Below, piece by piece: positions 43,628 to 48,876 of a DNA stretch of 64,000 nucleotides. The notes under the pieces were generated by a model. The model was not told where the DNA came from, ran no database searches, and was given only the letters and a program-made list of their open reading frames with translations. Made by a program: the position numbers and the translations under genes. This DNA comes from Baekduia alba (GTDB lineage: Bacteria; Actinomycetota; Thermoleophilia; Solirubrobacterales; Solirubrobacteraceae). Numbering within the stretch: the stretch's first letter is position 1; each line of letters opens with the position of its first letter. The stretch spans positions 3,162,001 through 3,226,000 of the forward strand of contig NZ_CP114013.1 in the NCBI RefSeq assembly GCF_028416635.1, written 5' to 3'.

Positions 43628-43775
43628 AGCGGTGGCGGCGACCCGAGGCCGACTGCGGCCAAGGGCGGTGGCGGCGCCGGCGGGTGCGAAGGCGCGTCTG
43701 CCGGGCGTGGCGGAGCGCAGCGGCGGCAGCAGCACCGGGCGGCCGAGCGTCGGTGGCCCGCTCGCCGGGGAAGAT

Positions 43776-43797
43776 GAGATCGGTTCTCGCTTATACT
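43776..43797 (+). promoter_or_regulatory. Metal-regulated promoter of the ABC operon
   Basis: A 13-bp palindrome GAGATCGGTTCTC (43776-43788) lies just before a strong -10 box TATACT (43792-43797). The first gene starts with GTG at 43807, nine bases on, so the transcript is probably leaderless. The palindrome resembles GGGAATGGTTCCC at the Fur gene (46653-46665). Confidence 0.65.
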
Positions 43798-43806
43798 GGC
43801 CGCCCA

Positions 43807-44646
43807 GTGCCCGCCCCATTCGACCTGCCGTTCGTCCAGCGCGCCGTCGTGGAGATCGTTCTCCTCGCGGTCGGTTCGGGGATCCTCGGCACGTGGATCG
43901 TGTTGCGGGGGCTGAGCTTCTACGCGCATGCGGTCGGCACGGCCGCGTTCCCGGGGCTGGTGCTCGCCGATGGGCTCGGCTTCTCGCCGCTGCTCGGCGC
44001 GCTGGCCACGGCGGGCATCGTCGCGATCGGCGTCACCGCGCTCGCCAATCGCGGCCGGGCGGAGTACGACACCGCGACCGCGCTGGTCCTGGTCGGCGCG
44101 CTCGCGGCCGGCGTCATCCTGGCGTCCGACGTCTTCCACTCCCAAGGCAGCGTCGAGCGCCTGCTCTTCGGGAGCCTGCTGCTGATCGACTCCACCGACC
44201 AGATCGTCGCCGCCGTGGTCGGCGTCGCGGCCCTGGCGATCGGCGCGGTGCTCGGCCGGCGGTGGCTGGCCCACGGCTTCGACCGCGAGAGCGCGAAGGC
44301 GCTCGGCGCGCGCTCGCCGCTGCCGGACCTCCTGCTCCTCGCCCTCGTCGCGGCCTCGGCCGTCGCGGCGCTCGACGCCATCGGCGCGCTGCTCGCCACG
44401 GCGCTCCTCGTCGTCCCGGCCGCCACGACCCGCCTGCTCGTCGACCGCCTCCGCACCTGGCAGCTGACGACCGTCGCGCTGGTGGTCGCCGAGGGCGTCT
44501 TCGGCCTCTACCTGTCCGTCGAGACCAACGCGCCCCCAGGCGCGACGATCGCGGTCGTCGGCGGCGTCGTGTTCGCGATCACCGCTCTCGGGCGCGCAGC
44601 CGTCACCGCGCGCACCGCGCGCACCACCGCCGAAGCGACCGCGTGA
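43807..44646 (+). CDS. Znu/Mnt-type ABC transporter permease 1
   Basis: A 279-residue membrane protein starting at GTG (VPAPFDLPFVQRAVVEIVLL) with about eight segments. GTWIVLRGLSFYAHAVGTAA and FPGLVLADGLG are the ABC-3 family signature found in zinc and manganese importers (ZnuB, MntB). It pairs with the second permease at 45374. No substrate-binding protein gene lies nearby. Confidence 0.85.
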   Translation: MPAPFDLPFVQRAVVEIVLLAVGSGILGTWIVLRGLSFYAHAVGTAAFPGLVLADGLGFSPLLGALATAGIVAIGVTALANRGRAEYDTATALVLVGALAAGVILASDVFHSQGSVERLLFGSLLLIDSTDQIVAAVVGVAALAIGAVLGRRWLAHGFDRESAKALGARSPLPDLLLLALVAASAVAALDAIGALLATALLVVPAATTRLLVDRLRTWQLTTVALVVAEGVFGLYLSVETNAPPGATIAVVGGVVFAITALGRAAVTARTARTTAEATA

Positions 44647-45377
44647 TCCTCAGCGCCGATCACCTCGCCGCCGGCTACGGCGGCCCGCCCGTCCTGCAGG
44701 ACGTCACCTTCACCGCCCAGGCCGGCCAGCGCATCGCCGTCCTCGGGCCCAACGGCGGCGGCAAGACCACGCTCTTCCGCACCCTCCTCGGCGAGCTGCG
44801 CCCCAGCGCCGGCAGCCTCGTCCGCCCGCCGCGCGTCGGCGTGGTCCCCCAGACCGAGCGCTCACGCCTGGACTTCCCCGTGTCCGCCCTCGACGTCGCG
44901 CTGATGGGCACGCTCTCGACCCTCCCGTGGTGGAAGCGCCCGACCAAGGCCGACCGCCGCCGCGCGCGCCAGGCCCTCGCGGACGTCGGCCTCGCCGACC
45001 GCGCCGACCGCACCTTCGGCGACCTCAGCGGCGGTCAGCGCCAGCGCGTCCTCGTCGCCCGCGCGCTCGTCCAGGACGCCCCGGTCCTCCTGCTCGACGA
45101 GCCCTACGTCGGCCTCGACACGCCCAGCGTCGCCCTCCTGGACGACCTCCTCGACCGACTCGTACAACAAGGTCGCGCGCTCCTGATCGCCACCCACGAC
45201 GTGGACCAGGCCCGCCGCTGGGAGCGCGTCCTCTGCCTCAACCGCCGCCAGATCGCGTTCGGCGAGCCGGCCGAGACGCTGACCCGCGAGACCCTCGAGC
45301 TGACCTACGGCGCCGAGATCGTCGACCTCCCCGGCGAGCGCTGCGTGCTGCCCGCCCACCACCACGACCACGCGTGA
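44643..45377 (+). CDS. Znu/Mnt-type ABC transporter ATPase
   Basis: A 244-residue protein from the GTG overlapping the upstream stop (GTGA). Walker A GPNGGGKTT, Q-loop VVPQTERSRLDFP, signature LSGGQRQRVLVARAL and Walker B VLLLDEP are all present. PQTERSRLDFPVSALDVALM is typical of the metal family. The C-terminus ends PAHHHDHA, a His cluster that could sense metal. Confidence 0.9.
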   Translation: MILSADHLAAGYGGPPVLQDVTFTAQAGQRIAVLGPNGGGKTTLFRTLLGELRPSAGSLVRPPRVGVVPQTERSRLDFPVSALDVALMGTLSTLPWWKRPTKADRRRARQALADVGLADRADRTFGDLSGGQRQRVLVARALVQDAPVLLLDEPYVGLDTPSVALLDDLLDRLVQQGRALLIATHDVDQARRWERVLCLNRRQIAFGEPAETLTRETLELTYGAEIVDLPGERCVLPAHHHDHA

Positions 45378-46234
45378 TCGCGACCATCTGGCACAGCCTG
45401 GTCGAGCCCTGGCAGCAGGGCATCGACCGCCGCGCGCTGATCGAGGTCCTGCTGCTCGGCCTCACCGGCGGCGCGCTCGGGTGCTGGATCATCTTCTACA
45501 ACCTGTCGTACTCCACCGAGTCGCTCGCGCACGCGCTCCTGCCCGGCCTCGTGCTCGCCGCGCTGACCGGCATCCCGCTGATCCTCGGCGGCGCCGCCGG
45601 CCTCGTCGTCGCCGCGCTGGCGATCGCGGCCGCCGCCCGGACCCCCGCGGTCGGCCGGGACACCGCGGTCGCAGTCGTGGTCACCGCGCTGCTCGGGCTC
45701 GGCGCGCTGCTCGCGCTCTCCCCCGACACGCCCGCCGGCCTCGGCGAGCTGCTCTTCGGCGACGTCCTCGGCGTGTCCGACACCGACCTCGCGCTCGCCG
45801 CGGCGCTCGCGGCCGCCGTGCTGATCGCCCTCGGCGCGCTCCACGGCCGCCTCCTGCTCGTCGGCTTCGACCGCCTCAACGCCCGCGCGCTCGGGGTCAA
45901 CCCCACCACCATCGACGTCGCCCTGCTGCTGCTCGTCGCCGCCGCGCTGCTCGTGGCCGTCCAGGGCCTCGGCAACCTGCTCGTGGTCGCGGTCCTCGTC
46001 GGCCCCGCCGCCTGCGCCCGCGCGGTCACGCACCGCATGTCCACCATGATGGTGGTGGCGGCGGCGACCGCCGTCGTCGCCGGCTTCGGCGGCCTCTACC
46101 TGTCCTACTACGCGCGCACCGCGGCCGGCGCGTCGATCGCGGCCGTCATCTGCGGCGTCTACGCCCTGGCGCTGCTCACGCGGAGCATTCCGCGCACGAG
46201 CCATGGAGCACCACGTCGTGCTCCGCAACCGTGA
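45374..46234 (+). CDS. Znu/Mnt-type ABC transporter permease 2
   Basis: A 286-residue protein from the GTG overlapping the ATPase stop (GTGA). GALGCWIIFYNLSYSTESLA and HALLPGLVLA are the ABC-3 signature. It probably forms a heterodimer with permease 1; many metal importers use a homodimer, so two different permeases are notable. Its 3' end overlaps the convergent Fur gene by 59 bases. Confidence 0.85.
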   Translation: MIATIWHSLVEPWQQGIDRRALIEVLLLGLTGGALGCWIIFYNLSYSTESLAHALLPGLVLAALTGIPLILGGAAGLVVAALAIAAAARTPAVGRDTAVAVVVTALLGLGALLALSPDTPAGLGELLFGDVLGVSDTDLALAAALAAAVLIALGALHGRLLLVGFDRLNARALGVNPTTIDVALLLLVAAALLVAVQGLGNLLVVAVLVGPAACARAVTHRMSTMMVVAAATAVVAGFGGLYLSYYARTAAGASIAAVICGVYALALLTRSIPRTSHGAPRRAPQP

Positions 46235-46661
46235 ACGTGACCTTCCGCGCCAGCCGCTGGATCGAGTCCTCCAGCTCGGGATCCTCGAACGGGATCACGA
46301 TGCCGCACGCGTCGCACACCATGTGATGGTGATGGCCTTCTGACCGGTGCGCCTCGAAGCGCGCCAGCCCCTGGCCGACCTCGACGCGGGTGATGAGCTT
46401 CAGCGCCTCGAGCTCTTCGAGGATGCGGTAGATCGACGCCCGCGCGACCGGCCGCGCCCCGTCGCCGGCGGTGCCCAGCGTCTCCTCGATCTCGGCCGCC
46501 GACAGCGCGCAGCGCTGGTCGTCGAGCAGCGCGATCAGCGACGCCCGCGCGCCGCCACGCCGGTAGCCGGCCTCGGCCAGCGCGTCGGTGGCGCGCTCCG
46601 CCCAGCACGCGCCGTCGGCGCACCCATGATGGTGATCGTGTTGGCTGCCGATGGGAACCAT
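46176..46661 (-). CDS. Fur-family regulator (probably Zur)
   Basis: A 161-residue protein with a His-rich start (MVPIGSQHDHHHGCADGAC), a winged helix (LSAAEIEETLGTAG, VARASIYRILEELEALKLIT) and the Fur metal sites HHHHMVCDACG and HGSCAEC (two Cys pairs for structural zinc). The ATG lies inside the palindrome GGGAATGGTTCCC and eight bases after TACCCT, so it is probably leaderless and self-regulated. With the neighbouring Znu-type operon, zinc control is the best guess. Confidence 0.85.
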   Translation of the reverse strand: MVPIGSQHDHHHGCADGACWAERATDALAEAGYRRGGARASLIALLDDQRCALSAAEIEETLGTAGDGARPVARASIYRILEELEALKLITRVEVGQGLARFEAHRSEGHHHHMVCDACGIVIPFEDPELEDSIQRLARKVTFTVAEHDVVLHGSCAECSA

Positions 46662-46881: not shown

Positions 46882-48831
46882 CTACGTCGAGAGCTGGGAC
46901 GCGACCTTCGACAGCGGCTCGGCCAGCGCGTCGACCAGCTGGCTCAGGCGCTTGCGCTCGGCCGGCGTGACCTTCTCGTAGGTCGGGTAGCTGTCGCCCT
47001 CCTTGAGCTGGGCCAGCCGCGCGTTGACGGCGTCGAAGCGCGCAGCGATCGTCGTCGCCAGCTCCGGGTCGCTCTTGCGCAGCGCCGGCGCGAGCAGCCC
47101 GAACGCGGTCTCCGAGCCCTCGACGTTGGCCTGGAAGTCGGAGAGGTCGGTGTGCGAATACCGATCCTCCTCACCCGTGATCTTGGAGGCCGAGACCTCG
47201 TCGAGCAGGCCGTTGGCGCCGTTGGCCAGCTCCTCGGGCTGGTAGGTCAGCCCGGTGGTCTTGGTCTGGAGCTGCTTGACGTCGGCCAGCAGCTTGTCGG
47301 CGATCGGGGTCAGGCCCTTCGTGGAGCTCTTGACCCACAGCCCCTGCTCGATCTTGTGGAAGCCCGTCCACGGCGTGCCCTTCGCGACGTCGTTGACGCG
47401 CGCGTCGATCTCGGGGTCCAGCGTGCCGAAGGACTCGGCGACCGGCTCGATCGTCTCGTACGGCGCACGGGCGGCGGCGAACTGGGCCTTGGCCTCCTCG
47501 ACGTCGCCGGCCTTGACGGCTTCGACGAACTTCTGGGTGCGCTGCACCAGGATCTTGGACTGGTTGGTGACGTAGGACGCGTAGGACGCGGTCGCGGACT
47601 TCAGCAGCGGGTCGCCCGCGCCGGTGTCGGCCACGGCCTTGCCGCCGACCGTCAGCGCGCCGGTCGCCGCGGTCTTCCCGCCCGGGCACGACATGGAGTA
47701 CTCGCCCGGCTTCAGGTTGACCGTGAACGACCCGGACAGGCCGGCGACCAGGTTCTCCTTCTCGCCCAGGATGCGCGAGCCGCTGAGCACCTCGAACTCG
47801 CTGACGCGCCCGGTCCCGCCGTTGGTGACCTTGAACTCGGTCGGCCCCGCGTTGAGCTTCATCGTCGCGGGCTCGCAGCCGGCGTCGGTCAGCTTGACCG
47901 CGACCTGCTTGGTGCCGGGCGCGCTGCTGGAGTCGTCCGACGACCCGCAGGCGGCGAGGAAAAGGGCGGCGGCGGTGACGACGACCGTCGCGACGGCGGT
48001 GCTCTTCATGCGGTGCTCCTTGGCGGGCTTCTTGCGCGCCGGAATCAAGATGTACGTGATGGCAGGGATGGCGTACGCGAGGTAGCCGATGACCTCGATG
48101 GTGGTCGGCTGCGGCTGCAGGCCGAGCATGCCCGTGAGCAATGCGGCGGTCCACGTGCCGGGGACGACGAGCCACGTCAGGTCGACGGCCTGGTCCTGGC
48201 CGAAGTTGATCCAGCCGGCCTCGTGGGCCGTGTGCAGCGTGCTGGCGACCAGGCCGGCCGCGACGAGCGCGAGCACGAGGCCGGTCAGCCGGAAGAAGCG
48301 GGCGTAGTTGAGCTTGACGCCGCCGCGGTAGATCGCGAAGCCGATGACGACCGCGGTGAGGATGCCGAGGATCGCGCCGATGCCGGCGGTGCCCGCGTTG
48401 TCGCTGTTCTGAAAGACGGCGACGAGGAAGACCGCGGTCTCCAGGCCCTCGCGGAAGACCGCGAAGAACGCCATGCCGATGAGCGCGCCGACCGAGCCCT
48501 GCTTGAGCGCGGACGCCGTGTTGGCGCGCAGCTCGGCGCTGAGCCCCGCCGCGTTGCGGCGCATCCACACCAACATGAACGTGACGATGCCCACGGCGAC
48601 CGCGCCGACGACCGTCTCCAGGCCCTCCTGCTGCTTCTGCGGGAGCTCCTGGTTGACGACCTCGAGCAGGATCCCGACCGCGAGGCAGATCGTGGCGGCG
48701 GCCACGACGCCGGCCCAGACCCAGCGCAGCGCGTCGGTCCGGCCCTCCTGGCGGAGGAACGTGGCGATGATCGAGACGATGAGCGCGGCCTCTACGCCTT
48801 CGCGCAGGCCGATCACGAACGTCGGAAGCAT
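46882..48831 (-). CDS. efeUO: EfeU-EfeO iron importer in a single open frame
   Basis: A 649-residue frame. Residues 1-270 are EfeU/FTR1: seven segments and two iron motifs, REGVE (10-14) and REGLE (127-131). At residue 275 begins MKSTAVATVVVTAAALFLAA then Cys295, a complete lipoprotein signal, followed by a cupredoxin-like part and the EfeO M75 domain with FHKIEQGLW. There is no stop between them; the internal ATG (48009) has AAGGAG at good spacing. Either a true fusion or two proteins from nested starts. EfeB was not found nearby. An iron-box-like palindrome overlaps the -10. Confidence 0.85.
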   Translation of the reverse strand: MLPTFVIGLREGVEAALIVSIIATFLRQEGRTDALRWVWAGVVAAATICLAVGILLEVVNQELPQKQQEGLETVVGAVAVGIVTFMLVWMRRNAAGLSAELRANTASALKQGSVGALIGMAFFAVFREGLETAVFLVAVFQNSDNAGTAGIGAILGILTAVVIGFAIYRGGVKLNYARFFRLTGLVLALVAAGLVASTLHTAHEAGWINFGQDQAVDLTWLVVPGTWTAALLTGMLGLQPQPTTIEVIGYLAYAIPAITYILIPARKKPAKEHRMKSTAVATVVVTAAALFLAACGSSDDSSSAPGTKQVAVKLTDAGCEPATMKLNAGPTEFKVTNGGTGRVSEFEVLSGSRILGEKENLVAGLSGSFTVNLKPGEYSMSCPGGKTAATGALTVGGKAVADTGAGDPLLKSATASYASYVTNQSKILVQRTQKFVEAVKAGDVEEAKAQFAAARAPYETIEPVAESFGTLDPEIDARVNDVAKGTPWTGFHKIEQGLWVKSSTKGLTPIADKLLADVKQLQTKTTGLTYQPEELANGANGLLDEVSASKITGEEDRYSHTDLSDFQANVEGSETAFGLLAPALRKSDPELATTIAARFDAVNARLAQLKEGDSYPTYEKVTPAERKRLSQLVDALAEPLSKVASQLST

Positions 48832-48839
48832 GCGCGCAT

Positions 48840-48876
48840 CTTAGGCGTCCCTAAGCGAAGATGTCGGGTTCCCTAA
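48840..48876 (-). promoter_or_regulatory. Iron-box-like sites at the efeUO promoter
   Basis: The palindrome CTTAGGGACGCCTAAG (48855-48840 on the minus strand) runs into TAAGAT, a TAnnnT -10 only six bases before the ATG. A second TTAGGGA lies 22 bases upstream (48876). TTAGG/CCTAA half sites are those of DtxR/IdeR boxes, though the spacing differs from the 19-bp consensus. Confidence 0.55.

What the first reader, a model, noticed from the sequence alone, without database searches (positions are those of the whole stretch)
46882..48831. EfeU and EfeO in one uninterrupted frame with an internal start
The permease runs straight into the EfeO lipoprotein signal with no stop, yet an AAGGAG and ATG sit at the join. 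Both a 649-residue fusion (with an internal signal) and a free EfeO could be made from one mRNA. In the fusion the binding domain would be tethered to the permease.
Basis: partly seen in the sequence, partly recalled or inferred. Interest (0 to 1): 0.6.

Follow-up and report, generated by a model that had tools for sequence, protein, structure and literature searches.

The report
Fused iron permease and binding protein
In this soil-type actinobacterium the iron channel EfeU and its iron-binding partner EfeO are encoded as one continuous protein, a fusion that arose several times in its family, and here the partner's old ribosome site, start codon and lipoprotein signal are still in place so that a free copy could also be made.

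Summary
The minus-strand ORF 48831..46882 encodes 649 aa with no stop: EfeU/FTR1 (1-264), a lipoprotein-type signal (275-295), then EfeO (cupredoxin plus imelysin M75). AAGGAG lies 6 nt before ATG 48009. About 2.4% of window ATGs have such a site.

The fusion is not a sequencing slip. Three species of the genus (83-84% identical to the window protein) share it with the ribosome site, ATG and lipobox. Within the family, 10 of 21 adjacent efeU-efeO pairs are fused. Outside it, 0 of 18 in sister families and 0 of 79 in named genomes are. The fused genes are not one clade (p-AU 1e-7; at least 5 changes). The joint decays stepwise: 3 keep the internal start and lipobox; 3 lack the start but keep the lipobox cysteine; 4 lack both. 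All keep a hydrophobic helix there, which would act as an eighth transmembrane segment placing EfeO outside.

So the tethered fusion is very probably a real product. A second, free EfeO from the internal start is plausible here but unproven; lipobox processing is a rival. EfeU-EfeO fusions were already noted in 2011 (PMC3143127). Interest is moderate.

The parts
46882..48831 (-). efeUO fused ORF, 649 aa (stop codon included)
48040..48831 (-). EfeU / FTR1 permease part (residues 1-264): seven hydrophobic helices, REGVE (10-14) and REGLE (127-131) motifs
   Evidence: PF03239 and NCBIfam NF041756; hydropathy; AF2 helices
48016..48021 (-). AAGGAG, ribosome-binding-like site inside the ORF
   Evidence: conserved in G010 and G009
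48007..48009 (-). internal ATG (codon 275), start of a possible free EfeO of 375 aa
47947..48009 (-). lipoprotein-type signal MKSTAVATVVVTAAALFLAAC (275-295); in the fusion the eighth transmembrane helix. Lipobox LAAC at 47958-47947, Cys295
   Evidence: sequence; hydropathy peak 278-296, mean 2.09; AF2 helix 278-294, low confidence
47644..47910 (-). EfeO cupredoxin domain (about residues 308-396)
   Evidence: PF13473, strands 308-396
46906..47595 (-). EfeO imelysin / M75 domain (residues 413-642) with GxHxxE motif (GFHKIE)
   Evidence: PF09375; EfeO/EfeM structures 7wgu, 7q1g match
48841..48854 (.). palindrome TTAGG-N4-CCTAA just before the EfeU start, probable iron-responsive operator
   Evidence: only match in window, 0.04 expected; conserved upstream of EfeU in many Thermoleophilia loci; 4 sites in the genome, 0 control

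Best explanation
A true gene fusion, caught at an early stage. One mRNA is translated from ATG 48831 into a 649-residue membrane protein. EfeU's seven helices end on the cytoplasmic side. EfeO's old signal sequence then crosses the membrane outward as an eighth helix, and a flexible Ser/Gly-rich linker holds the cupredoxin-imelysin domains of EfeO on the outer face next to the permease. This replaces docking of a separate binding protein by a tether, as in ABC importers with fused binding domains. Because efeO's own ribosome site, ATG and lipobox are still intact here, some free EfeO lipoprotein is probably also made from ATG 48009. In other genera the fusion has completed: the start is lost, then the lipobox. 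Shown: the continuous frame, its conservation in congeners, repeated origins, loss of start and lipobox elsewhere, and the retained hydrophobic segment. Inferred: that the fusion accumulates uncleaved, that the internal start is used, and that tethering helps iron transfer.
For: Continuous frame across the joint in four species of the genus, one of which carries a one-base frameshift further downstream. Ten fused pairs in the family with no stop between the domains. The fused genes are scattered on the EfeU+EfeO tree: 5 changes, with a single clade rejected at p-AU 1.2e-7. G028 (fused) and G026 (separate, with its own start and a stop between) are sister rows in the tree. All ten keep a 19-residue hydrophobic peak at the joint (mean 1.71-2.67). 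Seven have no internal start with a ribosome site upstream of the helix, and four have no lipobox Cys. In g1, AAGGAG-N6-ATG and LxAC are kept in G000, G010 and G009 while neighbouring linker residues vary. AF2: seven EfeU helices, helix 278-294, folded EfeO (mean pLDDT 86.8). Only one EfeUO locus was found in the genome. In Bacillus subtilis EfeU and EfeO are reported to form a minimal complex (Miethke et al. 2013 as cited in PMC9174327).
Against: No expression or protein data. Only three genomes share the internal start. The lipobox is retained in six of ten fusions, which could mean that cutting there still matters. Predicted accessibility of the internal start is average for the ORF (0.394 against a mean of 0.366). 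The AF2 joint has pLDDT under 50, so the eighth helix is not confidently placed.
Confidence: 0.6

Rival explanations
1. Fusion only: the internal AAGGAG/ATG is a relic and EfeO is made only as the tethered part of EfeUO.
For: Seven of ten fused relatives have no usable internal start, including G005 of the same genus, so a free EfeO is dispensable. AAGGAG is the default way to write Lys-Glu in this GC-rich DNA. Structure around the ATG is not unusually open.
Against: AAGGAG, its spacing of 6 and the ATG are unchanged in all three nearest species while the linker residues around them differ.
Confidence: 0.25
2. Polyprotein: the fusion is inserted, then Lgt and LspA treat helix 8 plus LAAC as a lipoprotein signal and cut before Cys295, leaving EfeU with an extra helix and a separate lipid-anchored EfeO.
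For: Lipobox Cys is kept in six of ten fusions, three of which lack any internal start (G005, G028, G117). LspA is encoded in the genome. From memory, not checked here: the cytochrome b/c1 polyprotein of Bradyrhizobium is cut at an internal signal.
Against: Four fusions lost the Cys (G051, G053, G021, G116) and so work without such a cut. I know of no LspA substrate with seven helices before its signal, though I did not search for one. Recent loss of the start would also leave the Cys in place for a while.
Confidence: 0.2
3. The fusion is only translational read-through of a recently lost stop: most functional EfeO is free lipoprotein from ATG 48009 and the fused form is a by-product.
For: Intact ribosome site, start and lipobox. 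Separate genes in all compared relatives outside the family.
Against: There is no stop anywhere between the domains in any of the fused genomes, and fixation in several lineages with later loss of start and Cys suggests that the fused form alone is enough there.
Confidence: 0.1

Closest known systems
EfeUOB / YwbLMN / FepCAB iron transporter
   Same: EfeU permease with REGxE motifs; EfeO with cupredoxin and M75 domains and a GxHxxE motif; an EfeB-type peroxidase is encoded in the genome.
   Different: EfeU and EfeO are one ORF; efeB lies more than 2 Mb away.
EfeU-EfeO fusions mentioned by Xu et al. 2011 (PMC3143127)
   Same: That paper states that a few EfeO-family members are fused to an N-terminal putative EfeU permease domain. 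This is the same architecture.
   Different: The passages read give no account of origins, of the joint, of an internal start or of lipobox loss.
ABC importers with fused substrate-binding domains (OpuA, GlnPQ; PMC11065425, PMC8025302)
   Same: Works alike: an extracytoplasmic binding domain covalently linked to the membrane domain instead of a free binding protein.
   Different: Unrelated protein families; EfeU is not an ABC transporter.
Cytochrome b/c1 polyprotein of Bradyrhizobium (from memory, not found in the library)
   Same: A polytopic membrane protein followed in frame by a signal sequence and an exported domain.
   Different: Cut by signal peptidase I as far as I recall; whether EfeUO is cut is unknown.

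Membership tests
EfeU (FTR1 family permease) | Profile match over the curated cut-off | tested here: met
   PF03239 205 bits against 25.3; NCBIfam NF041756 EfeU 303.8 against 255. TIGR00145 is below its own cut-off, 200.7 against 303.8.
EfeU (FTR1 family permease) | REGxE motifs in two helices, seven transmembrane helices | tested here: met
   REGVE 10-14, REGLE 127-131; seven hydropathy peaks before the joint and matching AF2 helices.
EfeO | Cupredoxin plus M75 domains with GxHxxE, profile over cut-off | tested here: met
   NF041757 EfeO 445.6 against 270; GFHKIE present; 7wgu EfeO found by sequence and fold.
EfeO | Exported as a separate periplasmic protein or lipoprotein | not testable with these tools
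   Signal and lipobox are present at the internal start, but the frame is continuous with EfeU; the product was not measured.
Bacterial lipoprotein | Signal with lipobox L-x-x-C, and LspA in the genome | tested here: met
   LAAC 292-295 by eye; PF01252 LspA 109 bits. Lipidation itself was not tested.
EfeUOB system | EfeB-type DyP peroxidase in the genome | tested here: met
   TIGR01412 488.6 bits against 428, at about 5.364 Mb, not in the operon.

The most novel reading that the evidence does not exclude
A two-output gene: one mRNA yields both a permanently tethered EfeUO transporter and a free EfeO lipoprotein by internal initiation, a regulated intermediate that selection maintains in this genus, while related genera independently completed the fusion by losing first the start and then the lipobox.
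Probability: 0.3. Interest if true: 0.6.

Novelty: new variant of a known kind. Interest (0 to 1): 0.42.

Why it matters
How EfeO hands iron to EfeU is not settled. Natural fusions that work without a free EfeO would imply that the two act as a stable 1:1 unit, and they would be good material for purifying and solving the complex; no EfeU structure was found in the PDB by sequence. The set of joints in one family is also a clear series of how two genes become one membrane protein, with a lipoprotein signal turned into a transmembrane helix.

Tried and rejected
Sequencing error at the joint: rejected, because three species from different assemblies share the frame. A single ancient fusion with later splits: rejected by the tree test, although gene transfer is not excluded. 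Unusually open mRNA at the internal start: not supported by accessibility (the 60-nt energy is milder than 91% of sites, weak). Fusions elsewhere in the phylum: none among the hits of a 396-genome sample. A paper on the Bradyrhizobium polyprotein was not found. Beyond locating its sites in the whole genome, the operator was not pursued.

Full report
Observation. The minus-strand ORF 48831..46882 was translated without a stop into 649 residues. Pfam and NCBIfam place EfeU/FTR1 at residues 1-264 and EfeO (cupredoxin plus imelysin M75) at about 290-646, each above the curated cut-off of its equivalog model. Both REGxE motifs of FTR1 proteins and the GxHxxE motif of EfeO are present. The join reads IPARKKPAKEHRMKSTAVATVVVTAAALFLAACGSS. 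AAGGAG stands 6 nt before ATG 48009, and from that ATG the sequence looks like a classical lipoprotein signal with lipobox LAAC. In the window 22 of 915 ATGs have a Shine-Dalgarno match of six or more, so the site is uncommon, though Lys-Glu gives AAGGAG almost by default in this base composition.

Relatives. The genome holds one such locus. Searches of 146 family and 232 order genomes and reading of the joints show ten in-frame fusions, all in the same family: G000, G010, G009 and G005 (genus g1), G028, G117, G116, G051, G053, G021. Eleven adjacent pairs in the family are separate: the EfeU frame ends at a stop before or just within the start of efeO, often in another frame. In sister families all 18 pairs are separate. 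Of the 80 loci returned from named genomes, one is fused and it is G009 again (Conexibacter sp. MAG); the other 79 are separate genes. A 396-genome sample of the phylum adds no fusion among its hits. The family is most likely Solirubrobacteraceae, an inference from record titles (Conexibacter, Patulibacter).

Repeated origin. A tree of EfeU plus EfeO, with the joint left out, needs five changes between fused and separate. Holding all fused rows as one clade is rejected at p-AU 1.2e-7. The sister of genus g1, G137, has efeU and efeO on different contigs, efeO with its own start. G028 (fused) and G026 (separate) are sister rows; comparing their joints suggests that a deletion removed the stop, the spacer and the start of efeO. 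Gene transfer may have moved some copies, so the number of events is approximate.

The joint as a series. (1) G000, G010, G009: AAGGAG-N6-ATG and lipobox. (2) G005, G028, G117: no start with a ribosome site, lipobox Cys kept. (3) G051, G053, G021, G116: no start and no Cys. In all ten a 19-residue hydrophobic peak remains (mean hydropathy 1.71-2.67). The yeast Ftr1 topology (outside N-terminus, cytoplasmic C-terminus) is taken from memory of Severance et al. 2004; with it, an eighth helix would put EfeO on the outside. The loss of Cys in four suggests that the segment serves there as a plain membrane anchor. AF2 gives seven EfeU helices, a low-confidence helix 278-294 and a well-folded EfeO, which matches E. 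coli EfeO 7wgu and P. syringae EfeM 7q1g.

Mechanism. The fused protein is very likely made and tethers EfeO to EfeU (my estimate 0.85). In the window genome the internal start is probably still used to some degree (about 0.55; inference). LspA is present, so cutting at the lipobox is a real alternative route to free EfeO. EfeB is encoded far away. A palindrome TTAGG-N4-CCTAA lies directly before the EfeU start, is conserved in front of efeU in many Thermoleophilia loci, and occurs four times in the genome with none in the control; it is the likely iron-responsive operator for the whole transcript.

Comparison. Xu et al. 2011 (PMC3143127) already state that a few EfeO proteins are fused to an N-terminal EfeU permease, so the architecture is known. 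I found no account of the repeated origins, the retained internal start or the loss of the lipobox in the papers searched, which cover open-licence papers only. In function it resembles ABC importers with fused binding domains (PMC8025302, PMC11065425), without being related to them.

Verdict. Real, ordinary in its parts, moderately interesting as an evolutionary series and as a test object for how EfeO and EfeU work together. The dual-product claim stays a hypothesis.

Noticed in passing
window 48841-48854: Palindrome TTAGG-N4-CCTAA before the EfeU start, conserved 14-132 bp upstream of efeU in many Thermoleophilia loci including distant EfeU paralogues, absent in Patulibacter; other Actinomycetota show TAAGG-N9-CCTAA, like DtxR/IdeR boxes. 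Four sites in the whole genome, one just before a ribosomal protein S4 gene (L152) and one beside an ORF that by eye resembles a siderophore-interacting protein C-terminus (L154).
   Followed up: partly
L151 1351-2571 (G000:C1 about 5.364 Mb): EfeB-type DyP peroxidase (TIGR01412) encoded over 2 Mb away from efeUO.
   Followed up: partly
L057 about 6882: The fused gene of G005 (same genus) carries a one-base frameshift in the M75 domain; real or a sequencing error, not decided.
   Followed up: partly
G053:C197:3-1994: One open frame of 668 codons holds three M75-like matches in tandem.
   Followed up: no
L041, L048, L049, L054: In several f2 genomes the EfeO match next to efeU covers only the cupredoxin part, suggesting that cupredoxin and M75 are split or M75 is lost.
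   Followed up: no
window 43632-46661: Zinc-uptake-like ABC genes (two permeases and an ATPase, by eye) and a Fur-family regulator (46176-46661, minus; PF01475) lie directly downstream of efeUO.
   Followed up: no
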